From: Rufibacter latericius
GTDB taxonomy: Bacteria; Bacteroidota; Bacteroidia; Cytophagales; Hymenobacteraceae
Length of the DNA: 64,000 bases
Reading direction: 5' to 3'
Assembly: GCF_003721515.1 (NCBI RefSeq)
Contig: NZ_RJJD01000015.1
Location: 162,258-226,257 of the forward strand
Below are positions 2,321 through 55,020 of this stretch, piece after piece (positions within the stretch are counted from its first letter, which is position 1; each line of letters opens with the position of its first letter). A model generated the notes under the pieces. It ran no database searches. It saw only the letters and a list, made by a program, of their open reading frames with translations, and was not told the origin of the DNA. The position numbers and the translations under genes are program-made.

Positions 2321-2357
2321 GTTTTAAGCGTATTTTGCAGAAAACAGGCCCCAAATG
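2321..2357. repeat. Palindromic intergenic element, degenerate copy
   Basis: Copy of the dispersed family with a TTTTC/GAAAA core described in the findings: GTTTTAAGCGTATTTTG followed by CAGAAAACAGGCCCCAAAT. It lies directly behind the gcvP terminator. Confidence 0.55.
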
Positions 2358-2384
2358 CCTCCTTTAACAATCTTCAAAAATATA

Positions 2385-2399
2385 GGTTTAAAATAAACC
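2385..2399. promoter_or_regulatory. Short perfect inverted repeat upstream of the DUF4136 gene
   Basis: GGTTTA-AAA-TAAACC in an AT-rich stretch about 160 bases before the lipoprotein start. It could be an operator, but there is no independent support and AT-rich DNA gives such repeats by chance. Confidence 0.25.
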
Positions 2400-2558
2400 G
2401 ATTGGTATAATATAGGCATAGTTTTTGCGTAGTATTGTACGAAAGAAACATTCTCCAGAACCAACTTTTACGCTTTCATGTTATCAATCTGAAGCGGGGA
2501 GGCCATTTAAGAGATGTTTTTCTCCTATTCTTTCACTACACTAAAACTGTACAAATCA

Positions 2559-3182
2559 ATGAAACCATTTAATAAGATAGCGAAGTTGATAACAGGGGTA
2601 ATGATGGGACTGTTGGTACTGGGTTTCACCGGATGTGCCACCACTTACAACGTAACCACTGACTTTGACAAAGGCACCAATTTCCAGGCGTACAAAACCT
2701 GGCGCTGGTACCAAGACCAACCAGTTGCCAAGGATTCTACCAACCGCCGTTACACTACGTTTTTAGATAAACGCGTGAAAAACGCGGTGGAAGCCGAGAT
2801 GCAGCGCCGTGGTTTTCAGAAAGCAAGTGCCTCTGACAAACCAGACATGTTGCTGGCCTATGATTTCACCATCGAGAACCAGCAGCGCCTGAATCCTAAT
2901 TTTGTGAGTGTGCCGTCTATCGGTTACGGGTACTGGTACGGTTACCGCTATGCGTACACCTACAACCGCCTGTACAACACCACCACTTTGCAGGACTACC
3001 AGCAAGGAACGTTGATTTTGGACGTAGTAGACGCTAAATCCAATGAACTGATCTGGCGCGGAAGCAGCGAAACTGCTGCCTCTGAAAGATCCCTGACCGA
3101 TGAGAAAGTACAGCAGATTGTCTCCAGCATTCTGGCCAAGTTCCCGCCACAAGAGCAGGAGAGAGCCACTGCCCGCCGGTAA
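2559..3182 (+). CDS. DUF4136 family lipoprotein
   Basis: Predicted 207-residue envelope lipoprotein. I chose the ATG at 2559 because it begins a clean signal peptide (MKPFNKIAK, then a hydrophobic stretch) ending in the lipobox LGFTGC with Cys26; an in-frame ATG 45 bases upstream would put an odd polar leader in front. The mature part has the DUF4136 pattern: an early YNVTTDFDKG strand, a YKTWRWY motif, a central Tyr-rich stretch (YGYWYGYRYAYTYN) and a C-terminal DVVDAKSNELIWRG segment. DUF4136 proteins are small beta-rich lipoproteins without an established biochemical role. The gene stands alone, with a terminator on either side. Confidence 0.85.
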   Translation: MKPFNKIAKLITGVMMGLLVLGFTGCATTYNVTTDFDKGTNFQAYKTWRWYQDQPVAKDSTNRRYTTFLDKRVKNAVEAEMQRRGFQKASASDKPDMLLAYDFTIENQQRLNPNFVSVPSIGYGYWYGYRYAYTYNRLYNTTTLQDYQQGTLILDVVDAKSNELIWRGSSETAASERSLTDEKVQQIVSSILAKFPPQEQERATARR

Positions 3183-3197
3183 TTGGTTACTTTAATC

Positions 3198-3259
3198 AAA
3201 ACAGCCCTAAAACAGAGGAGCCACCCAATTGGGTGGCTCCTCTGTTTTAGGGCTGTTTT
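3198..3259. terminator. 62-bp perfect palindrome between convergent genes
   Basis: Two perfect 31-bp arms with no unpaired loop, centred between 3228 and 3229. The outer part reads AAAACAGCCCTAAAACAGAG and its complement. It sits between a plus-strand gene ending at 3182 and a minus-strand gene ending at 3281, so it can terminate both. Its right arm overlaps a copy of the dispersed palindromic element. Confidence 0.8.
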
Positions 3260-3280
3260 CAGGAAAATACCTGCAAAACG
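3242..3280. repeat. Palindromic intergenic element copy
   Basis: CTGTTTTAGGGCTGTTTTC followed by AGGAAAATACCTGCAAAACG, matching the family consensus. It ends immediately before the stop codon of the minus-strand gene. Confidence 0.7.
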
Positions 3281-5266
3281 TTACTTGATCTTGAACTCCG
3301 TCCGGCGGTTGAGTTGGTGCTGGTCTTCGGTACATTCCACGCCATCGGCGCAGCCATTGATCAGGACGGTCTCGCCATAGCCTTTCCAGGTGAGGCGGTT
3401 CCGGGCGATGCCTTGGCTCACTAGGTATTCCACCGCTGATTGAGCCCGGCGCTCAGAAAGCACCTGGTTGTAGCCGTGGCCTTCGCGGCTATCGGTGTGG
3501 GAGCCTAGCTCAATCTTGATGCTGGGGTTGTCTCTGAGCATGCGCACCAGCTTATCCAGTTCTTTGGCGGCATCGGGGCGGATGTTCCATTTGTCCAGGT
3601 CATAGTAGATGTTCTCCATGGCGATGACCTGGTTCTTCTGGCTCTTGTCAAAGATGAGCGTCACGCGGGTGGTATCGGCGAGTTTCACCGTGTCAATAGC
3701 TACTAAAGCTGATTGGGTCAGGTACCCGAATTTGTCGCCTACCAAGTCATAGGTGGTGCCTTTCTGCACTCCAAACTTGTATTCGCCGTTGCGGTCAGAG
3801 AAGGCTACAACAGAATCCTGGGTCGCTTTGGGAGTCAGTTTCAGACGGACATCGGCCAGGGCTTGGGTGATGGCGCGCTTGCCTTTCACCTGCACTCTCT
3901 CCAACGTGGTTACAAACAGGACGGCGTTGCTCAACAGTTTAAAAGAGTAGATGTCATCAGTGCCGTTTCCGCTGTCCCGGTTAGAGGACAGGTAACCCAC
4001 CTGGGTATTGTTCGCGCCGCGCATAAACACCATCCCGAAATCATCTTTTGGCGAGTTCACCGGTGCGCGCAGGTTCTCTGGTTTGCTCCAGGTAGCCCGA
4101 CTGCCTTTGGTTTTGAAGACATCTAACCCACCGAAACCGGGGTGCGTGTCTGAGGAGAAGTACAGGGTACCGTTCTGGTCAAAGCCTGGGAACATCTCTT
4201 TGCCCACGGTATTCACCATGTTGCCCGCGTTCATGGGCTGGCCCCAGGTGCCGTCTGCTTGCAGTTCTGAGTAGTAGATATCGGTTTCGCCGTAGCCTCC
4301 GGGTTTGTCAGAGACAAAGTACAGCACCTGGCCATTAGGTGAGATAGCGGGGTGGCCCACGCTGTATTCGTCTACTTTGTTATAGGCGAAAGGCTTGGCT
4401 TCACCCCAGTTAGTTCCATCCCGGCGCGCCGAGAAGATTTCCAGGCGGTTCACGTAGTCACTGGAAAGCGACTTCTTCACCCAACTGGTAGGATCCACGT
4501 TCACGTCTTTCTGCTTTTTCTCCACCATGTGGGTGCGGGTGAAATAGAGCGTGGTATTGGCAGAGTCCATCACCGCAGGTCCATCATGATAAACCGAGTT
4601 AAGGGCGTTACCTGCTATGGCCGGCATTTGCCAGGTGCTATCCGCATTGCGCTGGGCATAGAACATCTGCAGGTACGGGCGTCCGGTCCAGCCGTAGGTG
4701 CCGGCATCCACGTCTTTGTTGCCGCTCACGTTGCCGCCTCGGTCTGAGGTGAACAGAATGCCCTGGTCATACACCGTCGGGCTGAAGTCAGCGTTGCCGG
4801 AGTTGATCTGGGCTTCGTTCACCACGATGGCAGAAGCCGGCTCTTCCAGCAACTTCAAGGCAGCGTCTGAGGCCTGGGCCTTCGCGTTGGCTTTGGCGGC
4901 CTCGGCGGGCACTTTCCGAGCATAATCCTGGTACTGGGTTTTCGCCTCGAAATACTTTCCGTTGCTCCGTAAAGCCTCGGCATAGTAAAACGTGTAGATG
5001 GGACCAGCCTCAGGCATGGCCACTACTTTGGCGTACCATTCCTCGGCCTCTTTCGTGCGGCCCGTCAGGCGGTAAGAATCCGCAAGGCGTTGGGCACCCT
5101 GCAAGGTAGGCTCCTTTTTGGCGAAAGTCTCCTGGTACTCTTCAATAGCCAGAGAATAGTCAAAGTTCTCGAACAGCCTGTCGGCTTTGCGCGTGGTCTG
5201 GCAGCTGCTCAAGGCAAGGCTACCGGCAAAAAAGGAAAGTAAAAGTGATTTGTATATGTTATGCAT
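3281..5266 (-). CDS. PorE-like OmpA/PD40 lipoprotein of the T9SS
   Basis: Predicted 661-residue outer-membrane lipoprotein, Cys22 in the lipobox ALSSC. Domains in order: a TPR-like helical region (about 25-140), a WD40-like/PD40 beta-propeller (about 165-445, with repeats such as SPTVYDQGILFTSDRGG and HPAISPNGQVLYFVSD), a carboxypeptidase-regulatory-like segment (about 450-540) and a C-terminal OmpA peptidoglycan-binding domain (about 550-661, with IYYDLDKWNIRPDAAKELD and ELGSHTDSREG). This is the architecture of PorE, a T9SS component thought to anchor the system to peptidoglycan. It is the last gene of a three-gene operon, 17 bases after a SprF/PorP-family gene that follows a type-B-sorted adhesin. 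It may therefore be the adhesin-specific paralogue rather than the main PorE. Confidence 0.85.
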   Translation of the reverse strand: MHNIYKSLLLSFFAGSLALSSCQTTRKADRLFENFDYSLAIEEYQETFAKKEPTLQGAQRLADSYRLTGRTKEAEEWYAKVVAMPEAGPIYTFYYAEALRSNGKYFEAKTQYQDYARKVPAEAAKANAKAQASDAALKLLEEPASAIVVNEAQINSGNADFSPTVYDQGILFTSDRGGNVSGNKDVDAGTYGWTGRPYLQMFYAQRNADSTWQMPAIAGNALNSVYHDGPAVMDSANTTLYFTRTHMVEKKQKDVNVDPTSWVKKSLSSDYVNRLEIFSARRDGTNWGEAKPFAYNKVDEYSVGHPAISPNGQVLYFVSDKPGGYGETDIYYSELQADGTWGQPMNAGNMVNTVGKEMFPGFDQNGTLYFSSDTHPGFGGLDVFKTKGSRATWSKPENLRAPVNSPKDDFGMVFMRGANNTQVGYLSSNRDSGNGTDDIYSFKLLSNAVLFVTTLERVQVKGKRAITQALADVRLKLTPKATQDSVVAFSDRNGEYKFGVQKGTTYDLVGDKFGYLTQSALVAIDTVKLADTTRVTLIFDKSQKNQVIAMENIYYDLDKWNIRPDAAKELDKLVRMLRDNPSIKIELGSHTDSREGHGYNQVLSERRAQSAVEYLVSQGIARNRLTWKGYGETVLINGCADGVECTEDQHQLNRRTEFKIK

Positions 5267-5283
5267 AGAAGCGTCTGTTAAAA

Positions 5284-6237: not shown

Positions 6238-6272
6238 TTCTAAGGGAAATTAATGTTTTGAACTACCTGCGC

Positions 6273-8495: not shown

Positions 8496-8537
8496 ATGAA
8501 GTGGTAAAGGATATTGTAATAATGTTTTATCTCAGAT

Positions 8538-8553
8538 ATTCCTATATAGGAAT
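8538..8553. promoter_or_regulatory. 16-bp palindrome in the predicted adhesin 5' UTR
   Basis: Perfect palindrome ATTCCTATATAGGAAT, about 45 bases upstream of the adhesin ATG and downstream of the proposed promoter. A second dyad, CTGCATG ... CTTGCAG, follows at 8561-8581. Candidate repressor site or mRNA structure. Confidence 0.4.
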
Positions 8554-8582
8554 AGAGCCCCTGCATGTACTTAGCTTGCAGG

Positions 8583-8613
8583 CAAAGGTTTTAGCTTATA
8601 GGAAAGATGCAAA
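8583..8613 (-). promoter_or_regulatory. Candidate Bacteroidota promoter of the adhesin operon
   Basis: On the minus strand TTTG, 19 bases, then AACCTTTG, against the consensus TTTG-N19-TAnnTTTG (one mismatch). It lies about 90 bases before the adhesin start. Confidence 0.4.
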
Positions 8614-8885
8614 ATACGCGAGGAGGACAGAAATAAGCTTTCTGACAGCAGGCTTGGCTACTTGGTGCTTTTTAAAAATCCCGGAACAGGAAAATGCTTT
8701 TTTACAGCGCAGATGAGTAGATATGGACGCAAGGTAGTTTTAAATAAATAGGAAAAAGCTTTTATTTTACTCCTTTTGCGGAAAACCGCACCCAAGTGTT
8801 TAAATACGAGTTTATTATTTTTATTCAATTCTAAGATAAAATCCCTGCTTCTTGGTTTCTTCACAAATAGAGACAAGCCACCACA

Positions 8886-8939
8886 AATAGTCCACAAAAA
8901 AGGCCTCGCTGATTAGCGAGGCCTTTTTTGTGGACTATT
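8886..8939. terminator. Bidirectional terminator at the lipA 3' end
   Basis: Perfect 25-bp arms around a GATT loop. The inner stem is AAAAAAGGCCTCGCT paired with its complement and has T-runs on both strands. It ends about 20 bases from the lipA stop codon. Confidence 0.85.
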
Positions 8940-8959
8940 CTTTAAAAACGCGCTTAAAA

Positions 8960-12123: not shown

Positions 12124-12167
12124 GTCTGTTTCGGGGCAGTTTTCCAGAAAACTGCCCCGAAACAGAC
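12124..12167. repeat. Palindromic intergenic element, likely terminator of the E1 gene
   Basis: Perfect 20-bp arms GTCTGTTTCGGGGCAGTTTT and complement around CCAG, 9 bases beyond the E1 stop codon. Same core as the copies at 16545 and 54987. Confidence 0.85.
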
Positions 12168-14156: not shown

Positions 14157-14489
14157 GGTTTTCGCGTTATCTGCGAGGCGTAAATTTAGTGCAATAGCCC
14201 GTGCCTGGAAACAATTGCCCCAGTTATTTTTACTTATCGTATTTGGGCTAGTTTGAGGAAATTATGCTAAAAACGACCTTCAATCAGGGTTTGGTCTGCG
14301 CCATGAAACCAGACGCCTGATTTATTTAGCGGAATGAGCACGAAAAGCTATCCATCCTATTAACAGCTAATACTAGCGCGATTGGAAGGGAGCAGGAAGG
14401 AAGTTAACCAGAAGACGAGCAAATAAACATTCGCAAAGCCTTATCCTTGCGATAACTACTTCACAAACAAACCCAGGCAACATAAAAAA
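14157..14489. other. Intergenic region upstream of the E1 gene
   Basis: About 330 bases without a gene. It contains one palindromic element copy (14238-14275) and presumably the E1 promoter; TAAATTTA on the minus strand near 14183-14190 resembles a -7 box with one mismatch. Nothing else stands out. Confidence 0.5.
14238..14275. repeat. Palindromic intergenic element copy
   Basis: CGTATTTGGGCTAGTTTG followed by AGGAAATTATGCTAAAAACG. This copy lies upstream of a gene (E1), not behind one. Confidence 0.6.
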
Positions 14490-16545: not shown

Positions 16546-16588
16546 GGTGTTTCGGGGCTGATTTCCGGAAATCAGCCCCGAAACACCT
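16545..16588. repeat. 44-bp perfect palindromic element at the M16 stop codon
   Basis: Two 22-bp arms with no loop, starting at the last base of the TAA stop. Core TTTCGGGGCTGATTTCC and complement, nearly the same as at 54987-55020. Probably a 3'-end hairpin. Confidence 0.85.
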
Positions 16589-17303: not shown

Positions 17304-17327
17304 AACCTACTTACAGGTAAGGCATCA

Positions 17328-17363
17328 TTTTTGCCCTGATTTCCTAAAAACCGGCCTAAAACA
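17328..17363. repeat. Palindromic intergenic element copy
   Basis: TTTTTGCCCTGATTTCC followed by TAAAAACCGGCCTAAAACA, 25 bases after the ispF stop. Confidence 0.65.
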
Positions 17364-17434
17364 GCTATCGTTTGTTCGTTACCCGAAAATTCAGTAGCAT
17401 TAAGGTCATTATACCAGAACAACAAACAATCTCA

Positions 17435-19154: not shown

Positions 19155-19158
19155 TATT

Positions 19159-19202
19159 TAAACAGAAAAAGGAGAGGCTAATGCCTCTCCTTTTTCTGTT
19201 TA
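19159..19202 (+). terminator. Terminator after the M28 peptidase gene
   Basis: Perfect 20-bp arms TAAACAGAAAAAGGAGAGGC and complement, loop TAAT; the right arm contains TTTTT. Symmetric, so it may act on both strands. Confidence 0.8.
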
Positions 19203-19229
19203 AATATATTTTATTGGCCTGTTCCCCGT

Positions 19230-19237: not shown

Positions 19238-19283
19238 TAGCTTGACCGCTTCTTCTACAGGGCGTTGCAGAAATGGACAACTT

Positions 19284-19319
19284 GCTTTGGGCCTTTTTTC
19301 TGGAAACAAGCCTTAAAGC
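19284..19319. repeat. Palindromic intergenic element copy in the lutB leader
   Basis: GCTTTGGGCCTTTTTTC, TG, then GAAACAAGCCTTAAAGC. It ends 6 bases before the lutB ATG, so it would be in the 5' UTR. Confidence 0.6.
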
Positions 19320-19325
19320 GGAGAG

Positions 19326-22342: not shown

Positions 22343-22388
22343 AAGCTGTTTTCAACCTGTTTACGAAAAACAAGGTCAAAAACAGCTT
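22343..22388. repeat. Palindromic intergenic element copy between serine genes
   Basis: AAGCTGTTTTCAACCTGTTT ... AAACAAGGTCAAAAACAGCTT. Located between the SerC-like and SerB-SerA genes. Confidence 0.7.
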
Positions 22389-24431: not shown

Positions 24432-24475
24432 AAGCGTTTTCAAGTCGTTTTCTGAAAAACAACTTGAAAACGCTT
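24432..24475. repeat. Palindromic intergenic element copy
   Basis: AAGCGTTTTCAAGTCGTTTT, CTG, AAAAACAACTTGAAAACGCTT; nearly perfect arms of 20 bases. It lies behind the asparagine synthetase gene. Confidence 0.75.
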
Positions 24476-26176: not shown

Positions 26177-27058
26177 ATGAGCGAGAGATCTGGCACAGGT
26201 AAGATTCAAGAATGGTTAAGGCAGGCTACCCTGCCTTTCCTGTTACTTTTCACCTTCGCCTGTGGCGATTCCGGCACGCCCGAGAAAGGAATCACCCTCA
26301 AAAGGAACGCCCGCAAGGTAAGCGTGATCGCGCACAGAGGAGCCTCTGGATTGGCCCCGGAAAACACCCTGGCCTCGGTGAAGAAAGCCTTGGAGACCGA
26401 TGCCGATTTCATTGAGGTAGACGTTCACCAAAGCAAAGACCAAGAGGTAGTAGTGATCCATGACCCAACCCTGGACCGCACCACCACCGGAACCGGCCGC
26501 GTAGAAGACTTTACCTTAGCCGAACTCAAGAAACTGGACGCCGGCATTAAGCTGGACTCAGCCTTTGCCGGTGAGCGCATTCCTACCCTGGCGCAGGTCC
26601 TACGCGCCGTGAAAGGCAAAAAGAAACTGCTCATCGAACTCAAGAAAGGCGAGGAAGACTATTACCCGGGCTTGGAGGAAAACACGATCAGGCTCATTCG
26701 GGAGAACCGGGCCGAGGAATGGTGCGTGCTTCAGTCGTTCTATGACCCCATCTTGGACCGCATCTGGAAAGCCGATTTCGTGATTCAGACACAGAAGCTG
26801 ATGGTGGGTAAGATTCCCTTCCTGCCCATCTATATTGACCATGAGCTTAAGTTCGGGGGCTTTGACCGGTACTCAGAAGCCACTACCATCAACGTGCACC
26901 GCTACTTCGCTTCAAAGGCTTTCATTAAATCATTGCACAGCCAGGGCTTCAAGACCTTCATCTGGACCGAAGACGAACCAAAAAACATCCAGAAGCTCTT
27001 TGAGATTGGGGCCGATGGCGTCATGACCAACCACCCGGAGCTGATCAAGAAGCTTTAG
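26177..27058 (+). CDS. Glycerophosphodiester phosphodiesterase, lipoprotein
   Basis: 293-residue exported enzyme that splits glycerophosphodiesters into an alcohol and glycerol 3-phosphate. Lipobox LFTFAC with Cys29, preceded by an unusually long N-region. The GDPD TIM-barrel is complete: His53-Arg54 in IAHRGASG, Glu62 in PENT, Glu80 and Asp82 in IEVDVH, and His95-Asp96 in VVVIHDPTLDRTT. The C-terminal FIWTEDEP and GADGVMTNHPEL motifs close the barrel. Monocistronic. Probable role: recycling phospholipid headgroups in the periplasm. Confidence 0.93.
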   Translation: MSERSGTGKIQEWLRQATLPFLLLFTFACGDSGTPEKGITLKRNARKVSVIAHRGASGLAPENTLASVKKALETDADFIEVDVHQSKDQEVVVIHDPTLDRTTTGTGRVEDFTLAELKKLDAGIKLDSAFAGERIPTLAQVLRAVKGKKKLLIELKKGEEDYYPGLEENTIRLIRENRAEEWCVLQSFYDPILDRIWKADFVIQTQKLMVGKIPFLPIYIDHELKFGGFDRYSEATTINVHRYFASKAFIKSLHSQGFKTFIWTEDEPKNIQKLFEIGADGVMTNHPELIKKL

Positions 27059-27059
27059 T

Positions 27060-27097
27060 CTGTTTCTAATCCGTTTTCCCAAAAACAAAGCGAAACC
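27060..27097. repeat. Palindromic intergenic element copy (first of two)
   Basis: CTGTTTCTAATCCGTTTTCC then CAAAAACAAAGCGAAACC, immediately after the GDPD stop. Confidence 0.55.
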
Positions 27098-27123
27098 ACT
27101 GAGAAGAACCTCTTCTTCTTTAC

Positions 27124-27152
27124 GCCTGATTTTCCATAAACACCCTTAAAAC
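27124..27152. repeat. Palindromic intergenic element, partial copy (second of two)
   Basis: GCCTGATTTTCC then ATAAACACCCTTAAAAC, running into the terminator at 27148. Confidence 0.5.
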
Positions 27153-27195
27153 ACCAGAGCCGCTTCTTTTGCTAAAGAAGCGGCTCTGGTGTTTT
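27148..27195. terminator. Bidirectional terminator between GDPD and DUF4407 genes
   Basis: Perfect 22-bp arms, with AAAACACCAGAGCCGCTTC in the left arm, loop TGCT. Between convergent genes. Confidence 0.85.
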
Positions 27196-30215: not shown

Positions 30216-30264
30216 AATCCCCGTTTAAGGCTTCGTTTAGGAAAACGGACTTTAAACGGGGATT
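30216..30264. repeat. Palindromic intergenic element copy
   Basis: AATCCCCGTTTAAGGCTTCG, TTTAG, GAAAACGGACTTTAAACGGG; the 23-base arms differ at only a few positions. Next to the TCAC repeat. Confidence 0.75.
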
Positions 30265-31200: not shown

Positions 31201-31380
31201 CTTTCGTCTTTATCTTATGGTTCTGAAACCTTCTTCTTACCTTATGCCAAGTTCCCGATTGTCTGCGCCCAAGGCGATTTTCCCAAAAGGTTAAGCCATT
31301 AAAATTACGGGAAAGAAAAGAGAATATCGGTATGTCTTTTATACGGCAACAGAAAAAAACCTAACATTAGTTCTAATTCT

Positions 31381-31416
31381 GTTTTTGGCGTATTTTTAAG
31401 TAAACAGCCCTAAATC
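31381..31416. repeat. Palindromic intergenic element copy upstream of the Crp/Fnr gene
   Basis: GTTTTTGGCGTATTTTTAAG then TAAACAGCCCTAAATC; ends 9 bases before the ATG. Confidence 0.55.
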
Positions 31417-31424
31417 TGCTGCGT

Positions 31425-34824: not shown

Positions 34825-34903
34825 AAGCGAGAAGTAAAATTCTGTCTGCTGTGTAAGAGAAGTGACTGACCCATTATCATAGAATTCTAAGGGTGCGAAA
34901 ACC

Positions 34904-34941
34904 CGATTTGGGCTTGTTTTTCAGAAACCAAGGGGAAAACG
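34904..34941. repeat. Palindromic intergenic element, degenerate copy
   Basis: CGATTTGGGCTTGTTTTTC then AGAAACCAAGGGGAAAACG. Confidence 0.45.
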
Positions 34942-35456
34942 TCTCTTCTCTGGAGGAACCTTCAGAGCAACGTACCAGGAGAACTGTTGTAAAGCCCGGA
35001 GGGCCGACTGAATGATCTTTGCCGAGATGCACCTTCCGCCGTTTCAAAGCCCCTACTTAGGTCATGGGCCTCTGCTGCGTTGTTTACAAATTGAGTTTAG
35101 GTAAACAAATTGAAGAAAGCAAGCCAAAATTAACCTAACTACATCATTATCAATTTACTATTGCGTTTTTTTTTGCAAAACAGGTAACATTCCTATTTAT
35201 CAACTACATAGTTCTTAATGCTGTTGGGAGATAGAAATAGGTTGAAAATAACATTACAGAAAACGCTTTACGGGCAAAATTGCCCAAAGCCTTACATCTG
35301 CACTCTTCTTTCTAAGGGACAAATCTAATTATAGTACCTTTAACTGTTCATTAGCTCAAAGACTGACCAGAACCTGCATTATTCAACGTAGGCTTATTCG
35401 CTCAGGTCAGTACTGTTTGACTTAGAAACTGCACATGAGTAAAACCATCGGAACAC

Positions 35457-35921: not shown

Positions 35922-35994
35922 ACGGTCATGTTGCTTTGTACTTAGGCAAGGCAATTTAGTGGAGTTATAGGCAAAACTTATACCCTAATCTTCC

Positions 35995-36032
35995 GTTTTT
36001 ATCCTAGTTTCCTGAAAACAGCCTTGAAACAG
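35995..36032. repeat. Palindromic intergenic element copy
   Basis: GTTTTTATCCTAGTTTCC then TGAAAACAGCCTTGAAACAG. Confidence 0.55.
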
Positions 36033-36120
36033 GACATCGTTTCTGGCTGGGTTTCCTTGCAGGATGCTTTTACCGCATGTATCACCTTAACTTGTTTTCT
36101 ATCACGTAACTCTACCCAAC

Positions 36121-38543: not shown

Positions 38544-38562
38544 TCAGAGAGCTAAATATCTT

Positions 38563-38602
38563 CTGTTTTAGGCCTGTTTTGGGGAAATGAGCCTGAAAGA
38601 AG
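38563..38602. repeat. Palindromic intergenic element copy
   Basis: CTGTTTTAGGCCTGTTTTGG then GGAAATGAGCCTGAAAGAAG, 20 bases after nnr. Confidence 0.65.
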
Positions 38603-38627
38603 CTTTGTTCCTGAATGGCTCCGGCGT

Positions 38628-39551: not shown

Positions 39552-39560
39552 TATTCTCTG

Positions 39561-39595
39561 GTTTCTGCTCCTCTTTCACAAAGGAGGCTTTAAAC
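39561..39595. repeat. Palindromic intergenic element copy
   Basis: GTTTCTGCTCCTCTTTCA then CAAAGGAGGCTTTAAAC. Confidence 0.55.
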
Positions 39596-39597
39596 GG

Positions 39598-39633
39598 GAA
39601 GCGCCGTTTTCCTATACGGGAAAGCGGCGCTTC
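39598..39633 (-). terminator. Terminator after the pyrophosphatase gene
   Basis: GAAGCGCCG ... CGGCGCTTC, strengthened by an inner TTTTCC/GGAAA pairing; 23 bases beyond the ppa stop. Confidence 0.75.
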
Positions 39634-41925: not shown

Positions 41926-41943
41926 TCTGTTAAACTTCTGATT

Positions 41944-41983
41944 ACGTTTTAAGGCTTTCTTTGTAAAAATGCCCCAAAAACGT
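41944..41983. repeat. Palindromic intergenic element copy upstream of the phosphatase
   Basis: ACGTTTTAAGGCTTTC, TTTGTA, AAAATGCCCCAAAAACGT. Lies within 20 bases of the phosphatase start. Confidence 0.6.
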
Positions 41984-42068
41984 AAATATAGTTGATAAAC
42001 GCTTTCCTTCCCCTTTTCCAGAAAGAGCCCCAAAATATAATTTATGGGTAACATACCCCTACAAAAGC

Positions 42069-47945: not shown

Positions 47946-47966
47946 ACGTGTTTGCTCCTGTTTCTA

Positions 47967-47999
47967 CAAAGGTAATCATCCCTGGTTCTCCGGGGCAGA
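47967..47999 (-). promoter_or_regulatory. Candidate promoter of the ATP synthase operon
   Basis: Minus strand TCTG, 21 bases, TACCTTTG (exact TAnnTTTG). About 22 bases from the atpZ start, so the leader would be short. Confidence 0.5.
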
Positions 48000-48010
48000 A
48001 AAGATTTTTC

Positions 48011-48050
48011 CTGTTTTGGGCCTCGTTTAGGAAAAACAAGCCTAAAAAGA
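48011..48050. repeat. Palindromic intergenic element between divergent operons
   Basis: CTGTTTTGGGCCTCGTTTAG then GAAAAACAAGCCTAAAAAGA. It lies between the atp and porW-like promoters. Confidence 0.65.
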
Positions 48051-48131
48051 CCTGGTTCGCACAAAATCGCCCTTCTTAATTCATCACCCAGCTTGCCTTT
48101 CCCGTACTATCGGAACAGAGCTAAAAAAATG

Positions 48132-48139
48132 TAAATTTG
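48132..48139 (+). promoter_or_regulatory. Candidate -7 box of the PorW-like gene
   Basis: TAAATTTG, exact match to TAnnTTTG; no -33 box at the right distance. About 130 bases before the proposed start. Confidence 0.35.
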
Positions 48140-48268
48140 CTTTTAGCCGGGCAAGGAAAACCTAAGGGCCTACGTATAGGTACGTTTCTGGCTCGTTTTG
48201 GCTTAAACAGATATAAAATAAAAAAGACTCTGCGCAGTTCTACTAGTATTCCAACATTTGACGCAACG

Positions 48269-50857
48269 TTGAAGCTGACTCGTTTTCTTCTATTCTTTCT
48301 TCTGCTGGCAACCCTCTCCGGTTGTTCTTCTGATAAGCCTTTGGGCAAACTTTACCGAAACATCAATGCCCGCTTCAACGGGTATTTCCTGGCGCGCCAA
48401 AAGTTAGAGGCGGTAGAGGCCCGCATTGCAGCGGCCACGGTGAATGATTATAACCGCGTGCTGGATATTCTACCGGCTCCAGACACCGCCCTGCTGAGAA
48501 CCCTGGCCCCCGACCTGGACGAGGTCATCAAGCGGGCTTCCTTTCCAATTGCCCGTCATCCAAAATCACGGTGGATAGATGATTGCTACGTGCTCATTGG
48601 CAAGGCCCGCTATTACCAGGGCGAAGACGCCGAAGCCCTTAAGACGTTTCGGTTTGTCCAGACCACCAGCCCAGACCGTAATGCCCGCCATGAAGCCCTG
48701 ATTTGGATGATGCGCCTTTCGCTTCGGCAGAAAGACTACGATAACGTGATCTCTATCTCAGAGCAGTTCCGGAAGGAGCGCATGAACGAAGACAATGGCC
48801 GTGAGTTGCTCTTGACCCGGGCCCAACTGGCCAGCATTCAGAATAACCTGCCTCTAGTGATAGAGAACCTGGAGCAAGCCATTCCTTTCGCCCATAAAAG
48901 AGACCAGGAATCCCGGCTTCGGTTTATCCTGGGTCAGCTGTACCAAGCCACCGATCAGGACACCAAAGCCTACGAGCAGTTCACAAAGGTGATCAAGAAA
49001 CGACCACCCTATGAACTGGGCTTCTACGCTAACCTTGGCTTGGCCCAAGTAACCGAATTGAAAGACGTCACCGATAAGGAAAAGGTGAAAACCTTTCTGC
49101 ACAAGTTAGCCGATGACGACAAAAACAAGGAATACACCGATAAGATCTACTATGACCTGGCCAAGCTGGAACTTCGGGAGAAAAAATACCCTGAGGCCTT
49201 GAAGTTGCTGAGTCAGTCCACGGCGACCTCTACCACCAACAAAGTGCAGAAAGCGTACTCCTACCTCTTAGCCGGGCAAATCTATTACGAGAACATGCAG
49301 CAATACCGCCTGGCCCAGGCGTACTATGACAGCACCCTGCAACTCTTACCGCCCACTACCCTGGGGTACGAAGAACTCGCAGACAGACGCACTGTGCTCA
49401 CCGCTTTTACGCAACAATTGGAGATCATCCGGACCGAGGATAGCCTACAGGCCTTAGGACAGCTAAGTGCTACCGAACGGGCTCAACGGGTGGCCGAGCA
49501 AATAGCCCGGGAGCGGGAGGCAGAAAACTCTGCGAACCAAGTTGCTGCGAACAATGCCAATGGCGCCAGACCTACCCAGCAAACAGCAACCCTGCCCATT
49601 GGCGGGACCGGAACCGCGGGCAGCACTTGGTATTTTGACAACCCCGCCGCTATAGCCAGCGCCCGAAACGACTTTTTGCGCTCCTGGGGCGACCGTCCGT
49701 TGCAGGATAACTGGCGCCGGACTACGGCCATTGCTGGTTCTACCGGCCTTACCGCTGGCCCGGTGACGAGTACTACCGTAGACAGCACCGCCCTTGCCGC
49801 CGCCGCCCAACAGAAACAGGAAGCCTACCTAGCCGCTATTCCGGTTACCCCAGAGAAACGACAGGCTTCTGCCAAAAAGGCGGAGGAAGCGTTGTTCACC
49901 CTGGCTAATATTTACCAGCAGCGGTTACGGGAGCCCGAGAGAGCAACCCAGACCTTCCAGAAACTATTGGAGCGTTTCCCTAACACTTCTCACGCTTCTG
50001 AGGCCTACTACAGTTTGTACGTGATGGCCCAGGGCCTTCAGCAGCAAGACAAAGCCGCTGAGTACGCCAAAGTGCTCAAAGACAAGTTCCCAAACTCTAA
50101 GTACAGCAAACTCATTGACCAACCAGATTTCCTGCGCACCTATTCGGCTGAGAACATGGCGGCGCATGCCCTGTATGATTCTGCCTATGTGCTGTATGAA
50201 CAAGAAAAGTACCCAGAGGCTTTGGCCGTTTTAGCCTCCCTTTCGCAAAAGTACCCTCAAAACGATGTCCAGGACCAAAGTGCTTTCCTGCAGGCCTTGG
50301 TGACCGGCCGTACCCAGCCGGCAGCCACCTTCAGAAATGCCATGGAGAAATTCATTATCCAGTATCCTGAGAGTCCGCTTTTACCTAAGGCCCGTGATTT
50401 TATGAACCTGTACCTGCGCTATGAGACCGGAGAGTTGGCCAAAGCCCCTGATGTAGGCAGCACTCCTGTGCCCCGCAAAGAGGAAACACCCAGGTACAAA
50501 GCAGAAAGAAGCCTGCCACATAATTTCGTGATCGTGCATACCGGCGACAGCTTGGCCTTGAAACAGCTCGTGGCGGCATACGGCACCTATAATGCCCGCT
50601 TTCACCCCAAAAAGCAGTTGAAACTGGAAACCATCGCCTTCAACGACACCACCAATCTGCTCGTCATTGGGGCTCTACCCGATTTTAAAGCCGCCCAACA
50701 GTACACCAAACTTCAGACGGCACGCAATTCACCATTAGCCAATTTAAAAGGCTCGAAATTTGCTACCTTTGTCATTACTGAATCAAACCTGGCTGTTCTT
50801 GAAATGCTGGGAAACATTGAGCAGTATGTAGCATTCTTTGAAAAAAATTACCAATAG
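48269..50857 (+). CDS. PorW/SprE-like T9SS TPR lipoprotein
   Basis: 862 residues if translation starts at TTG 48269, which gives a textbook lipoprotein signal (KLTRFLLFFLLLATLSGC, Cys19); the frame is open upstream to another TTG at 48137, but that part has no signal features and no ATG is available. TPR-like helices cover most of the protein. The segment STWYFDNPAAIASARNDFLR followed by SWGDRPLQDNWRRT is characteristic of SprE/PorW, a T9SS outer-membrane lipoprotein that links the outer-membrane complex with PorN/GldN. A coiled, Ala/Gln-rich linker (about 420-500) and a C-terminal domain resembling the GldN-contacting end follow. One base separates it from PBP1A. Confidence 0.87.
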   Translation: MKLTRFLLFFLLLATLSGCSSDKPLGKLYRNINARFNGYFLARQKLEAVEARIAAATVNDYNRVLDILPAPDTALLRTLAPDLDEVIKRASFPIARHPKSRWIDDCYVLIGKARYYQGEDAEALKTFRFVQTTSPDRNARHEALIWMMRLSLRQKDYDNVISISEQFRKERMNEDNGRELLLTRAQLASIQNNLPLVIENLEQAIPFAHKRDQESRLRFILGQLYQATDQDTKAYEQFTKVIKKRPPYELGFYANLGLAQVTELKDVTDKEKVKTFLHKLADDDKNKEYTDKIYYDLAKLELREKKYPEALKLLSQSTATSTTNKVQKAYSYLLAGQIYYENMQQYRLAQAYYDSTLQLLPPTTLGYEELADRRTVLTAFTQQLEIIRTEDSLQALGQLSATERAQRVAEQIAREREAENSANQVAANNANGARPTQQTATLPIGGTGTAGSTWYFDNPAAIASARNDFLRSWGDRPLQDNWRRTTAIAGSTGLTAGPVTSTTVDSTALAAAAQQKQEAYLAAIPVTPEKRQASAKKAEEALFTLANIYQQRLREPERATQTFQKLLERFPNTSHASEAYYSLYVMAQGLQQQDKAAEYAKVLKDKFPNSKYSKLIDQPDFLRTYSAENMAAHALYDSAYVLYEQEKYPEALAVLASLSQKYPQNDVQDQSAFLQALVTGRTQPAATFRNAMEKFIIQYPESPLLPKARDFMNLYLRYETGELAKAPDVGSTPVPRKEETPRYKAERSLPHNFVIVHTGDSLALKQLVAAYGTYNARFHPKKQLKLETIAFNDTTNLLVIGALPDFKAAQQYTKLQTARNSPLANLKGSKFATFVITESNLAVLEMLGNIEQYVAFFEKNYQ

Positions 50858-50858
50858 C

Positions 50859-53159
50859 ATGTCGTCAACGCCTGTTAAGAAGTACCGGAAAGTTATTTCG
50901 GCACTATGGCTGCTTTTTGCCGGAGGATTCGTGTTCTTCCTGCTATACGTTTTTGCCGTTAGCATCAACTTCCTGAATCTGTTCGGCGACCTGCCCGACC
51001 TGAAAACCCTGGAGAACCCCAAAAGCGAACTAGCCTCGGAAGTCTATTCTGAAGACGGCAAGCTTCTAGGCAAGTACTTCCGGGAGAACCGCTCTCCTGT
51101 CACCTTTGAGCAATTGCCAAAGACCTTGGTAGACGCACTGGTAGCCACTGAGGATATCCGGTTTGAGGAGCACTCGGGCATTGACTTCAAAGGCACCCTG
51201 GCCGTACCTTATTATAAACTGACCGGCAAACAGGACCGTGGCTCCAGTACGCTCACCCAGCAGCTGGCTCGTAACCTTTTCCGGACCCGTGATGACCTTA
51301 ACAACGGTTTGCTCAGCGATGTGCCTGGCTTGCGCATGCTCATCATCAAGACTAAGGAATGGATCATGTCCGTTAAACTGGAGCGCTCTTATACTAAGAA
51401 AGAGATCATGCTCATGTACCTGAACACGGTGGATTTCGGGAGCAACGCCTACGGCATTAAGGTTGCGGCCAAGACGTTTTTCAACAAAGATCCGCAGCAA
51501 CTCACCCTGGAAGAAGGCGCCACCTTAGTGGGCGTTTTGAAAGGCCCGTCTTTCTATAGCCCGGTTTTACGCCCAGAACGTTCCTTGAGTCGGCGCAACA
51601 CTGTGCTGGACCAGATGCGCAAGTACCAATACATTGATGAACCTACCTACCAAACAGCCAGTGCCAAGCCTATCAAACTGGACTTCAACGTAGAGAACCA
51701 GAACAAAGGCCTGGCCCCTTACTTCCGCACGGAAATTGGTAAATCACTGGCGCAGTGGTGCCGTGACAATGGCTATGACCTGTACTCCGATGGATTGAAG
51801 ATCTATACTACCATTGACTCGCGCATGCAGAAGCACGCCGAAGCGGCTTTGGAGCAGCACATGAAGGTGATGCAGAAAGAGTTCTTCCAGCAATGGAAAG
51901 GCCGTAACCCCTGGATTGACGAAAACGGCCGCGAAATAAAAGGCTTTTTGGCTACTCAGATGAAGCGCACTGCCCGGTACAAGAGCCTGGTGGAGCAATA
52001 CGGCAGCAACGAAGATTCCATCAACTACCACCTCAACCACAAAATACCAATGCGTATTTTCACCTGGCAAGGGGAGAAAGATGTAGTCATGAGCCCGATG
52101 GACTCTTTACGCCACTACAAGCATTACCTGCAGGCCGGATTTATGGCCATGGACCCGCTCAACGGGAAAGTGAAAGCTTGGGTAGGAGGTACCAACTTCA
52201 AATATTTTAAATATGACCACGTAAAGCAGGGGGCACGTCAGCCGGGTTCTACCTTCAAGCCGTTTGTGTACACCACCGCCATTGAGTCTGGCTACTCGCC
52301 CTGCTACACCGTTACAGATGCTCCGGTGACCATTATCAACCCAGACGGAAAGCCCTGGACACCTAAAAACAGCGATGGCAAATACACAGGCCGCAGATAT
52401 ACCCTGCGCGAAGCTTTAGCGCTTTCGGTGAATACCATCACCACCTACCTGATGAAGAAACTGGGCCCTGAAAGCGTGGTAGCCACGGCCAAACGATTGG
52501 GTATTACCACCCCACTGGATCCTGTGCCTTCCTTGGCTCTGGGGTCAAGCGATGTAACGTTGTATGACATGGTAGGAGCCTACGGAACCTTCGTGAACAA
52601 AGGAACCTGGACTCAGCCCCAATACCTCGTCCGGATTGAGGACAAGAACGGGAACGTATTGCATGAATATGTCCCTAAAACCGTAGAGGCCCTCAGTGAA
52701 GAAACTGCTTACCTGATGGTGCATATGCTGCAAGGCTCCGCCGATACTCGCGGTGGCACGGCGTACTACGGCTTACGTCACCGTTATGGCCTGAAAAACG
52801 AAATCGGGGCAAAAACCGGGACTACCTCTAACTACTCAGATGCCTGGTTTATGGGGATTACCCCAGATCTGGCAGCCGGTGTGTGGGTAGGAGGCGAAGA
52901 CCGCAGTATTCACTTCCGGAGCGCTGCCTATGGCCAGGGAAATAAACTCGCCATGCCTATTTATGCGCTGTTCATGCAGAAGGTGTACGCAGACAAATCA
53001 CTGAGTGTCTCCAAAGCCGCTTTCCCGAAACCTTCGCAGCCATTATCCACGAATATCAATTGTGGACGCACCGACTTTGTACCTACCGTGACTGATTCCG
53101 TAAAACAAGAGCAAACCCTTACCCTGCCCCAAAAAGTAGAAGAAGAGGAAACGTTCTAA
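50859..53159 (+). CDS. Bifunctional penicillin-binding protein 1A (glycosyltransferase/transpeptidase)
   Basis: 766 residues from ATG 50859, which directly follows the preceding stop; a TTG start seven codons earlier overlaps it but is less likely. One membrane helix at about 14-37. Glycosyltransferase 51 domain (about 60-240): EDIRFEEHSGID holds the catalytic Glu, and GSSTLTQQLARN follows. Transpeptidase domain (about 420-700): Ser in PGSTFKPF, SVN in ALSVNTITTY and KTGTT. Builds and cross-links peptidoglycan. Apparently in one transcript with the PorW-like gene and uvrC. Confidence 0.95.
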   Translation: MSSTPVKKYRKVISALWLLFAGGFVFFLLYVFAVSINFLNLFGDLPDLKTLENPKSELASEVYSEDGKLLGKYFRENRSPVTFEQLPKTLVDALVATEDIRFEEHSGIDFKGTLAVPYYKLTGKQDRGSSTLTQQLARNLFRTRDDLNNGLLSDVPGLRMLIIKTKEWIMSVKLERSYTKKEIMLMYLNTVDFGSNAYGIKVAAKTFFNKDPQQLTLEEGATLVGVLKGPSFYSPVLRPERSLSRRNTVLDQMRKYQYIDEPTYQTASAKPIKLDFNVENQNKGLAPYFRTEIGKSLAQWCRDNGYDLYSDGLKIYTTIDSRMQKHAEAALEQHMKVMQKEFFQQWKGRNPWIDENGREIKGFLATQMKRTARYKSLVEQYGSNEDSINYHLNHKIPMRIFTWQGEKDVVMSPMDSLRHYKHYLQAGFMAMDPLNGKVKAWVGGTNFKYFKYDHVKQGARQPGSTFKPFVYTTAIESGYSPCYTVTDAPVTIINPDGKPWTPKNSDGKYTGRRYTLREALALSVNTITTYLMKKLGPESVVATAKRLGITTPLDPVPSLALGSSDVTLYDMVGAYGTFVNKGTWTQPQYLVRIEDKNGNVLHEYVPKTVEALSEETAYLMVHMLQGSADTRGGTAYYGLRHRYGLKNEIGAKTGTTSNYSDAWFMGITPDLAAGVWVGGEDRSIHFRSAAYGQGNKLAMPIYALFMQKVYADKSLSVSKAAFPKPSQPLSTNINCGRTDFVPTVTDSVKQEQTLTLPQKVEEEETF

Positions 53160-53179
53160 GGAAGAAGATTAAGAAGACT

Positions 53180-54982
53180 GTGGAGGAATCATTAAAAGAG
53201 CAACTGAAGCATTTGCCCCATCGGCCAGGCATCTACAAATACTATGATGACAAAGGCATCATCTATGTGGGCAAGGCTATTGATATCCGCAAGCGGGTTA
53301 GTTCTTATTTTAACCGATCCACGCAGCACAATAAGAAAACCCTCAAGCTGATCTCACAGATCAAGCGGATTGAATTTACCATTGTAGACAGTGAGGCCGA
53401 TGCTTTTTTGCTGGAGAACAACCTTATCAAGCAGCATCAGCCTAAATACAATATTCTGCTCAAAGACGGAAAGTCATATCCTTTCCTTTGCATCACCAAT
53501 GAACGGTTTCCGCGGGTTCTGAGTACCCGTAACAAACTGAACGATGGTTCTAGGTACTTTGGGCCTTATCCCAGCGGGACCAGCATGTACGTGATACTGG
53601 AACTGATCAGGACGTTGTACCCGCTGCGTACCTGTAGCTATAACCTTAGCCCCGCTAACATTGAAGCCGGCAAGTTCAAGGTCTGCCTGGAGTACCACAT
53701 CGGTAACTGCAAAGGGCCCTGCGAAGGCCTATATGATGAAACGCAGTACAACGAACATATCCAGCAGATCCGGAATATTCTCTCCGGAAACCTGACGGTA
53801 GCCAAAAACTACTTCAAGGAGGCCATGTCCGCCGCTGCCGCTGATTACCAGTACGAGTTAGCGCATCAGTACAAACAGAAACTAGATCTGCTGGATGATT
53901 TCCAGGCCAAGTCTACCGTGGTGAGCCATACCCTCACCAACATCGATGTCTTCACCATCACTTCTAATGAGAAGTGTGCCTTCATTAACTATCTCAAGGT
54001 CATGAACGGCTCCATCATTGGCACCCAATCCCTGGAACTGCAGAAGAAACTGGAAGAAACCGACCAGGACATTCTGGCTTCTATGATCATGCAGTTGCGG
54101 TCAGATTTTGAAAGCACTTCCAAAGAGATCCTGGTGAACATAGATGATTTGGTCCTTCCCTTGGAAGGTGTCACGGTGAACGTCCCACAGATTGGTGACA
54201 AACGGAAACTCCTGAACCTTTCCATGAAGAATGCTTTGTACCTGCGGAAGGAAAAGGAAAGCATGCAGGACAAATCAAAAGACAGCAACGAGGTTCGTAT
54301 CATGGAAACCATGAAACGTGACCTGCGCCTCACAGAGCTTCCCAAACATATTGAGTGCTTCGATAACTCCAACTTTCAGGGCGATAACCCTGTGGCGTCC
54401 ATGGTGTGTTTCCGGAATGCGAAACCGTCTAAAAAGGATTACCGGCACTTTCACATCAAAACGGTGGTGGGTCCAGACGATTTTGCCTCTATGTACGAAG
54501 TAGTGACCCGCCGGTACCGTAGGCTGATTGATGAAGGAACTTCTTTACCCCAACTAATTATCATTGATGGGGGCAAAGGCCAACTAGGCATGGCCGTGAA
54601 GGCATTAAAAGACTTGGGAATTTACGGGCAAGTGGCCATTGTGAGTATCGCCAAACGCTTAGAGGAAATTTTCTACCCAGGAGACTCGCTCCCGCTTTAC
54701 ATAGACAAGAAATCTGAAACCCTGAAACTGATCCAACGCCTGCGCAACGAGGCGCACCGGTTCGGGATCACCTTTCACCGCTCCCTCCGCGATGCCGGTA
54801 CCTTGCAAACCGAGCTAACCAAGGTCAAAGGGTTAGGCCCGGCCACTGCCGAAAAATTGCTGAGTAAGTTCAAGTCGGTAAAGAAAATCGCCGAGCTGTC
54901 ACAACAGGAACTGGAGAGTGAGGTTGGCAAAAGCAAAGCCCGCCTGTTAGTAGAGTACTTCGAACAAACCCAGAAGAAGTAA
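53180..54982 (+). CDS. uvrC: Excinuclease ABC subunit C
   Basis: 600-residue nuclease of nucleotide excision repair, making both cuts beside lesions bound by UvrAB. Starts at GTG 53180, 20 bases after PBP1A. GIY-YIG nuclease at about 15-95 (RPGIYKYYDDKGIIYVGKA), a UVR domain near 210 (YQYELAHQYKQKLDLLDD), a UvrC RNase-H-like domain (about 380-530, ECFDNSNFQGDNPVASMV; IIDGGKGQLGMAVKAL) and C-terminal helix-hairpin-helix motifs (KVKGLGPATAEKLLSKF). Normal length. Confidence 0.97.
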   Translation: MEESLKEQLKHLPHRPGIYKYYDDKGIIYVGKAIDIRKRVSSYFNRSTQHNKKTLKLISQIKRIEFTIVDSEADAFLLENNLIKQHQPKYNILLKDGKSYPFLCITNERFPRVLSTRNKLNDGSRYFGPYPSGTSMYVILELIRTLYPLRTCSYNLSPANIEAGKFKVCLEYHIGNCKGPCEGLYDETQYNEHIQQIRNILSGNLTVAKNYFKEAMSAAAADYQYELAHQYKQKLDLLDDFQAKSTVVSHTLTNIDVFTITSNEKCAFINYLKVMNGSIIGTQSLELQKKLEETDQDILASMIMQLRSDFESTSKEILVNIDDLVLPLEGVTVNVPQIGDKRKLLNLSMKNALYLRKEKESMQDKSKDSNEVRIMETMKRDLRLTELPKHIECFDNSNFQGDNPVASMVCFRNAKPSKKDYRHFHIKTVVGPDDFASMYEVVTRRYRRLIDEGTSLPQLIIIDGGKGQLGMAVKALKDLGIYGQVAIVSIAKRLEEIFYPGDSLPLYIDKKSETLKLIQRLRNEAHRFGITFHRSLRDAGTLQTELTKVKGLGPATAEKLLSKFKSVKKIAELSQQELESEVGKSKARLLVEYFEQTQKK

Positions 54983-54986
54983 GCTG

Positions 54987-55020
54987 TTTCGGGGCTGTTT
55001 TCAGGAAAACAGCCCCGAAA
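54987..55020. repeat. Palindromic intergenic element, likely terminator of uvrC
   Basis: TTTCGGGGCTGTTTTC, AG, GAAAACAGCCCCGAAA: perfect 16-bp arms, 5 bases after the uvrC stop. Confidence 0.85.

What the first reader, a model, noticed from the sequence alone, without database searches (positions are those of the whole stretch)
2321..55020. Dispersed palindromic intergenic element, about 20 copies in 64 kb
Seen: copies near 2321, 3242, 12124, 14238, 16545, 17328, 19284, 22343, 24432, 27060, 27124, 30216, 31381, 34904, 35995, 38563, 39561, 41944, 48011 and 54987. Consensus by eye is GTTTTAGGCCTGTTTTC, 2-4 bases, then GAAAACAGGCCTAAAAC. The inner TTTTC/GAAAA core is best kept and arms show paired (compensatory) changes, e.g. 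TTTCGGGGC with GCCCCGAAA. No copy is inside a confident gene. Many lie 1-40 bases after a stop codon, but several lie in leaders (Crp/Fnr, lutB, phosphatase, E1), so terminators alone do not explain them. I do not recognise this as a described family. It resembles REP-type elements in plan. Inference: a mobile or spread 3'-end hairpin.
Basis: partly seen in the sequence, partly recalled or inferred. Interest (0 to 1): 0.8.

Follow-up and report, generated by a model that had tools for sequence, protein, structure and literature searches.

The report
Genus-specific intergenic palindrome in Rufibacter
Bacteria of the genus Rufibacter carry hundreds to thousands of copies of a short mirror-symmetric DNA motif between their genes, kept by selection and apparently read as DNA by an unknown partner, while copies at gene ends can also fold as RNA hairpins.

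Summary
All 20 listed copies are recovered by a motif model built outside the window; 30 window sites pass the cut-off against 0.4 expected. The genome (Rufibacter, Hymenobacteraceae) has 1,589 pattern matches against 48 for the reversed pattern. All 16 genomes of the genus have it; 184 other genomes of the family have 0-3 matches. The unit is a strict dyad of four T/A tracts, TTT-TTT-AAA-AAA, about 42 times denser between genes than inside. It is not simply a hairpin: between relatives the tracts are 94-96% identical while arm middles drift like the flanks (70% v 74-76%). A promoter-side copy shows no pairing signal in its orthologues; a copy beside a stop codon shows strong compensatory pairing. 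Positions mostly persist, no empty site was seen, and some species have sharp dialects. No dependence on RAYT transposases was found. My reading: a genus-specific DNA site, probably bound by an unidentified two-fold symmetric protein, with 3'-end copies secondarily used as RNA hairpins. REP-like in plan, but failing three REP criteria.

The parts
2317..2360. element copy (reader 2321), 52 nt after a stop; a terminator-like hairpin lies directly before it (about 2285-2320, by eye)
   Evidence: dyad score 34.4; RNA fold z -1.67
   Evidence: score 20.2; inverted repeat 3188-3269
3240..3283 (.). element copy (reader 3242), convergent gap
   Evidence: score 33.4
   Evidence: score 20.2
12124..12167 (.). 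element copy with 21-nt perfect arms, 9 nt after the stop of an E1 dehydrogenase-type gene
   Evidence: arms; score 35.6; RNA fold z -9.1 on the - strand; kept in 5 of 5 relatives aligned
14236..14277 (.). element copy upstream of the E1 dehydrogenase-type gene
   Evidence: score 25.2; RNA fold z -0.38
16546..16587 (.). element copy directly after the stop of an M16 peptidase gene; RNA-hairpin type
   Evidence: score 22.0; 97.5% paired, 19 double-change cells v 5.8 shuffled, 11 orthologues
17324..17366 (.). element copy between a YgbB (ispF-type) gene and an M28 peptidase gene; no pairing signal
   Evidence: score 34.6; 76.7% paired v 76.9% shuffled, 10 orthologues; RNA fold z +0.26
19280..19322 (.). 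element copy 3 nt before the start of a lutB-like gene
   Evidence: score 35.4; kept in 9 of 9 aligned
22344..22386 (.). element copy between serC-like and serA-like genes
   Evidence: score 32.3; kept in 15 of 15 aligned
24433..24475 (.). element copy upstream of the serA-like gene and 27 nt after the next gene's stop
   Evidence: score 28.1; kept in 9 of 9 aligned; RNA fold z -7.1 on the - strand
27058..27100 (.). element copy at the stop of a GDPD gene, convergent gap
   Evidence: score 21.6; kept in 6 of 7 aligned
27114..27156 (.). second element copy in the same convergent gap
   Evidence: score 28.8; kept in 6 of 7 aligned
30219..30261 (.). element copy (reader 30216), convergent gap
   Evidence: score 26.1; kept in 8 of 8 aligned
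31377..31420 (.). element copy in a divergent gap, 4 nt before a start
   Evidence: score 30.2; RNA fold z +1.2; kept in 6 of 6 aligned by the weak criterion, 4 of 6 by regex
   Evidence: score 30.4
34901..34943 (.). element copy (reader 34904)
   Evidence: score 26.7
35992..36034 (.). element copy (reader 35995)
   Evidence: score 34.5
   Evidence: score 27.0
38561..38603 (.). element copy (reader 38563), convergent gap
   Evidence: score 36.9
39558..39599 (.). element copy (reader 39561)
   Evidence: score 20.1
41943..41984 (.). element copy (reader 41944)
   Evidence: score 28.5
   Evidence: score 24.7
48010..48052 (.). element copy (reader 48011), divergent gap
   Evidence: score 32.7
   Evidence: score 24.2
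54982..55025 (.). element copy (reader 54987) directly after a stop, convergent gap
   Evidence: score 37.1; RNA fold z -5.4
   Evidence: score 19.2

Best explanation
The element is a dyad-symmetric DNA recognition site of about 38-42 bp: two T tracts 11 bp apart, a short centre, and two A tracts 11 bp apart, with a GGC-type block inside each half. Pattern counts are 650-2,385 per Rufibacter genome. It sits in intergenic DNA, most densely between convergent genes. Selection holds the tracts (shown by comparison of relatives). A sequence-specific, two-fold symmetric protein, shared by all copies of a genome and differing between species, probably reads it and acts as a nucleoid-type or boundary factor (inferred; no such protein was found). 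Copies just after stop codons have gained a second, RNA-level role: their arms pair, the pairing runs on into the local flanks, and 13-17% of them overlap an intrinsic-terminator-like hairpin (shown as sequence pattern; effect on transcripts not tested).
For: Intergenic bias: 882 hits in 470 kb intergenic v 89 in 1,988 kb genic, 16 genomes. Strict polarity: 828 TTT-TTT-AAA-AAA v 10-33 for each of the other 15 tract orders. Tracts 94-96% identical between relatives v 70% arm middles, 68% centre, 74-76% flanks; 39 element pairs. Copy 17324 has no pairing signal in 10 orthologues, although 13 of 16 genomes keep all four tracts. Largely the same dialect in stop-side and other copies of a genome, eight genomes compared. 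Positions: 80 of 90 orthologous regions of relatives hold a regex copy, 92 of 95 keep a dyad at the aligned place by a weaker criterion, no clean empty site. RNA role at 3' ends: G.U v A.C mismatches 275:211 (p 0.004) within 60 nt of a stop, 210:214 further away, 96:121 near starts; stems extend into flanks in the 3' classes; covariation at 16546.
Against: No reader protein found: HU (PF00216) and ParB (PF02195) show no genus-specific extra member in 39 genomes. The G.U bias is modest; in the later stretches alone 75:57, p 0.14. Arm pairing is above permuted pairs in all location classes, also divergent (z 3.1) and far from stops (z 3.7), which a pure DNA-site model does not require. Lying upstream of the promoter box is not preferred beyond the antisense control (88 v 72 expected sense; 28 v 24 antisense), so a boundary role has no positional support there. 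In six sharp-dialect genomes 26 of 386 half-sites have no recognisable partner, about 4 expected by chance. Six genomes show copies more like each other than like orthologues, which repeated overwriting would also give.
Confidence: 0.5

Rival explanations
1. An RNA hairpin at transcript ends (terminator or 3'-end stabiliser) is the primary function; promoter-side copies are strays.
For: Most frequent between convergent genes (152 of 245 regions occupied v 113 of 266 divergent); strong covariation at 16546; G.U bias and stem extension at 3' copies.
Against: Copy 17324 is kept (13 of 16 genomes) without pairing beyond shuffles; non-3' copies carry largely the same dialect; only 13-17% of 3' copies overlap a terminator-like hairpin, and 23-40% of the genes concerned have a separate one; tracts are conserved while arm middles are not.
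Confidence: 0.2
2. REP-like mobile element, moved in trans by a Y1 (RAYT) or other transposase and re-spread in each species; shared positions reflect target preference.
For: High copy, intergenic, dialects; in G012 and five other genomes copies resemble their own genome's copies more than their orthologues; 15 of 16 genomes have a Y1 transposase match.
Against: G006 has 1,666 pattern matches and no PF01797 match at E<=0.001; Y1 loci have elements on both sides in 7 of 16 v 101 of 279 control genes; no GTAG or CGTC tag, 6 of 762 neighbour distances under 60 bp; no clean empty site; tracts conserved while the rest drifts.
Confidence: 0.12
3. Topological site: a gyrase-binding or cruciform element that relieves supercoils between genes.
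For: Densest between convergent genes (2.83 per kb v 1.92 tandem and 1.26 divergent); BIME-2 repeats of E. coli are reported to bind gyrase (PMC2817692, passage seen).
Against: Sharp dialects and restriction to one genus are hard to square with a universal enzyme (inference); only one tract order is enriched, which argues against simple A-tract curvature. Not tested directly.
Confidence: 0.08
4. DNA-uptake-type watermark, like DUS with dialects.
For: Copy number and dialects resemble DUS dialects (PMC3630211, passages seen).
Against: The dyad is the unit: of 386 half-sites in six sharp-dialect genomes 26 have no partner and 3 of these are in genes; genic hits are rare, whereas intragenic DUS are common (PMC3630211 passage).
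Confidence: 0.03

Closest known systems
REP sequences / BIMEs (GTAG and CGTC families, RAYT-associated)
   Same: Short palindromes, high copy, mostly intergenic, between convergent and same-direction genes near 3' ends (PMC3733652: abstract and two sections read)
   Different: No GTAG/CGTC tag, hardly any close pairs, no transposase association found, symmetric phased tracts, positions mostly kept between species, one copy type conserved without pairing
DNA uptake sequences (DUS) of Neisseriaceae
   Same: Thousands of copies, species dialects, inverted pairs associated with terminators (PMC3630211, passages seen)
   Different: Here the dyad itself is the unit and it is rare in genes
HIP1 of cyanobacteria
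   Same: Lineage-limited abundant palindrome (PMC4390886, listing and start of abstract seen)
   Different: HIP1 is GCGATCGC, 8 bp; this is about 40 bp and mostly intergenic
Intrinsic terminators
   Same: Some 3' copies are parts of terminator-like hairpins; T-rich tails follow 24-29% of copies 20-45 nt after a stop
   Different: Most copies lack a T tract, and separate terminator-like hairpins occur nearby

Membership tests
REP (GTAG/CGTC type) | unpaired GTAG or CGTC tag at one end | tested here: not met
   within 8 nt of the arms: GTAG 70 of 841 v 83.5 shuffled; CGTC 41 of 841 v 100.7 shuffled
REP (GTAG/CGTC type) | RAYT gene in the genome, flanked by the element (GTAG families) | tested here: not met
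   no PF01797 match at E<=0.001 in G006; both-side flanking 7 of 16 Y1 loci v 101 of 279 control genes
REP (GTAG/CGTC type) | high-copy extragenic palindrome, near 3' ends | tested here: met
REP (GTAG/CGTC type) | frequent close pairs in opposite orientation | tested here: not met
   6 of 762 neighbour distances under 60 bp, 24 at 60-120 bp
Intrinsic terminator | GC-rich stem followed by a U tract in the sense direction | tested here: not met
   overlaps only 13% (tandem, n 279) and 17% (convergent, n 186) of genes with a copy within 60 nt of the stop
DUS/USS | single oriented core, also inside genes | tested here: not met
   six sharp-dialect genomes: 142 dyads, 26 of 386 half-sites without partner (about 4 by chance), 3 of them in genes; in G000 the cut-off is too low to tell, 131 alone v 100 by chance
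Rfam RNA family | match at the gathering score | tested here: not met
   0 matches in the window
Nucleoid or boundary protein site | a protein that binds the sequence | not testable with these tools
   indirect only: tract conservation, strict dyad, shared dialect

The most novel reading that the evidence does not exclude
One bacterial genus has evolved its own genome-wide site code: a dedicated sequence-specific chromatin-type protein with some 650-2,400 sites, one or more in about half of all intergenic regions of 40 bp or longer, whose recognition sequence has been rewritten at most sites of individual species (dialects), while 3' copies were co-opted as RNA hairpins.
Probability: 0.28. Interest if true: 0.88.

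Novelty: new variant of a known kind. Interest (0 to 1): 0.7.

Why it matters
Dispersed palindromes are often read as mobile debris or RNA hairpins. Comparing 16 related genomes separates two layers here: selection on the tracts of a DNA dyad, and RNA pairing at gene ends. If a partner protein exists it would be a genus-specific genome organiser with an unusually large set of sites (my judgement), and the dialects would let one ask how a factor and over a thousand sites change together. Named type strains exist in the records hit, so the tests below are open to ordinary laboratories.

Tried and rejected
Pure A-tract curvature: rejected, since only one of 16 tract orders is strongly enriched. 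Uptake watermark: not supported. RAYT-driven REP: not supported. Insulator placed upstream of promoters: the shift equals the antisense control, so not supported. Candidate readers HU and ParB: one main copy each in the genus, as in other genera. Phage carriage: two exact patterns, 0 matches in viral contigs. Low variance of counts per 20 kb is what one site in about half of the intergenic regions would give (inference), so I drop it. Papers: two searches held no paper, 56 two, 73 one unrelated by title; of the 30,660 papers of one search only the 15 listed were seen; none of what I saw describes a Rufibacter or Hymenobacteraceae repeat. PMC12306157 (RepRanger; passages) does not mention Rufibacter. 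The library holds open-licence papers only.

Caveats: genes were called by a home-made hexamer model. Gene names come from Pfam domains and recall. The 92 of 95 figure uses MAFFT alignments that the motif itself may pull together and a weak cut-off (95th percentile of shuffles); it covers 10 element positions in 9 regions; the region of copy 14238 (3 genomes) was left out by the script. By the stricter regex 80 of 90 regions of relatives hold a copy somewhere (counted by hand over 10 regions); 111 directed comparisons, 84 present, 7 not (6 a coding look-alike in lutB, 1 within a larger gap difference), 20 unresolved; the pairs overlap, and some of the 84 may be the same look-alike. One search pairs also overlap. 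Alignments A1 and A2 used 11 of 14 and 10 of 13 regex-positive orthologues; the rest differ in length, register or place. In both, the tract columns are invariant by choice of rows. Confidence was lowered from 0.55 to 0.5 and the novel case from 0.30 to 0.28 after checking the promoter control and the lone half-sites.
Full report
OBSERVATION. The window lies in a 5.67 Mb genome. A regex TTT-(7-9)-TTT-(3-8)-AAA-(7-9)-AAA finds 26 sites in the window against a mean of 0.4 in 40 Markov simulations; the reversed order AAA-AAA-TTT-TTT finds 2. A matrix trained only outside the window recovers 20 of the 20 reported copies and gives 30 sites in all at a cut-off where simulations give 0.4. In 464 kb of this genome there are 182 intergenic sites in 82 kb and 25 genic in 382 kb; second-order simulations of the intergenic regions give 3.9 against 174 observed there. 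A fixed-spacing pattern with up to 3 mismatches gives 1,589 matches genome-wide against 48 for the reversed pattern. Extrapolating 182 per 464 kb gives about 2,200 (estimate).

WHO HAS IT. The serA-like protein of the window hits seven named Rufibacter records and Sabulibacter ruber at 88-97% identity; those eight loci carry 6-13 regex sites per 22 kb, against 0-1 in the seven next loci. Of 59 genomes searched, the 15 others of the genus have 650-2,385 matches against controls of 26-68; other genera show no comparable excess, the most lopsided being G048 with 26 v 3. Of 200 genomes of the family, the 16 of the genus have 39-2,791 matches over both strands and the other 184 have 0-3. In 395 genomes drawn from the phylum, this one has 728 v 5; the next largest excess over control is 11.

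ANATOMY. Only the order TTT-TTT-AAA-AAA is strongly enriched: 828, simulated 20; the other 15 orders give 10-33, simulated 12-19. In six genomes with sharp dialects there are 142 dyads; of 386 half-sites 76 have a weak partner and 26 none, 3 of these in genes, about 4 expected by chance. Several of the lone ones printed sit beside an eroded partner. Consensus half-sites range from nnnnGTTTTnGGCCnGTTTT here to TCCGTTTTCGGGCTCATTTC in G012 and TTnCGTTTAGGGGCTnTTTT in G004; some genomes (G008, G015) have only a weak consensus. Copies near stops and other copies share largely the same dialect within a genome (eight genomes). The sister genomes G006 and G013 share theirs.

LOCATION. In 2.46 Mb from 16 genomes, 882 regex sites are intergenic and 89 genic. 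Of intergenic regions of 40 bp or more, 152 of 245 convergent, 449 of 958 tandem and 113 of 266 divergent ones are occupied. Relative to the TAnnTTTG promoter box in tandem regions, 88 copies lie upstream (72 expected at random) and 16 between box and start (20 expected), but antisense boxes give the same shift (28 v 24; 5 v 6), so there is no promoter-specific preference.

DNA OR RNA. Between related genomes the tracts are 96% (outer) and 94% (inner) identical, arm middles 70%, centre 68%, flanks 74-76% (39 element pairs from 6 overlapping genome pairs; only one side of each pair was chosen by the regex). Selection holds the tracts, not the arm sequence. For the copy right after the M16 stop (16546), 11 orthologues give 97.5% paired cells (shuffled 87.5) and 19 double-change cells (shuffled 5.8). 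For the copy in front of the M28 gene (17324), 10 orthologues give 76.7% against 76.9% shuffled; 13 of 16 genomes match the four-tract regex there. Of eight window copies folded as RNA, four fold far beyond shuffles (16546, 54982, 12124, 24433) and four do not, the nearest being 2317 with z -1.67. If RNA structure is selected, G.U mismatches on the transcribed strand should exceed A.C: within 60 nt of a stop 275:211 (p 0.004; later stretches alone 75:57, p 0.14), convergent 166:134 (p 0.07), beyond 60 nt 210:214, near starts 96:121, divergent 118:130. Arm pairing exceeds permuted pairs in every class, most near stops (z 9.6 tandem; 4.6 convergent, 3.7 far, 3.1 divergent). It runs about 6-7 bp into the local flanks in the 3' classes, with at most a weak excess elsewhere (divergent z about 2). 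So I read the motif as primarily a DNA site, with RNA hairpins added at gene ends.

TERMINATION. Terminator-like hairpins overlap the copy in 13% (tandem, n 279) and 17% (convergent, n 186) of genes with a copy within 60 nt of the stop; separate ones occur in 23% and 40%. Without an element within 120 nt the figures are 24% (n 560) and 59% (n 235); with one at 60-120 nt, separate ones occur in 51% (n 77) and 67% (n 51). Sense-side T tracts follow 24-29% of copies lying 20-45 nt after a stop, against 2-12% on the other side. Terminators alone do not explain the family.

EVOLUTION. In relatives, 80 of 90 orthologous regions hold a regex copy and 92 of 95 comparisons keep a dyad within 15 columns of the window's copy by a weaker criterion. 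A check anchored on flanks found 84 of 111 present, 7 not and 20 unresolved, with no clean empty site. In G012 copies resemble each other (0.761) more than their orthologues (0.591); the same order is seen more weakly in G004, G005, G013, G001 and G006; in the other ten genomes orthologues are at least as alike. Stable places with a rewritten sequence point to one trans-acting reader per genome or to repeated overwriting of existing sites; the data do not separate these.

MOBILITY. Y1 transposase (PF01797) is found in 15 of 16 genomes; G006 has none at E<=0.001 yet 1,666 pattern matches. Elements lie on both sides of Y1 genes in 7 of 16 loci against 101 of 279 genes of similar size. No GTAG or CGTC tag and few close pairs. 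REP criteria were taken from PMC3733652 (abstract, two sections) and PMC2817692 (passages). PMC6006769 (passages) reports a Bacteroidetes subclass of Y1 transposases flanked by atypical structures; a distant origin of that kind remains possible.

VERDICT. A real genus-specific family of intergenic dyads under selection, for which the paper searches named here showed no description. It works partly like REPs but fails three REP criteria tested. The reader protein is inferred; two families checked gave no candidate.

Noticed in passing
window 8889-8936 and 19157-19204; about 2285-2320 (by eye): Ordinary terminator-like hairpins with a GC stem between A and T tracts, separate from the elements.
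   Followed up: partly
window 3188-3269: 41-bp inverted repeat (90% complementary) joining a terminator-like hairpin to the element at 3240.
   Followed up: no
window 50225-50266 and 658-699: Two dyad matches (scores 27.8 and 20.0) inside predicted genes; chance or real copies not decided.
   Followed up: no
   Followed up: no
2.46 Mb sample, upstream regions: TAnnTTTG is strongly sense-biased upstream of tandem genes (169 v 37), as expected of the Bacteroidota-type promoter (label recalled).
   Followed up: partly
window just after 30261: CACT tandem repeat directly following the element.
   Followed up: no
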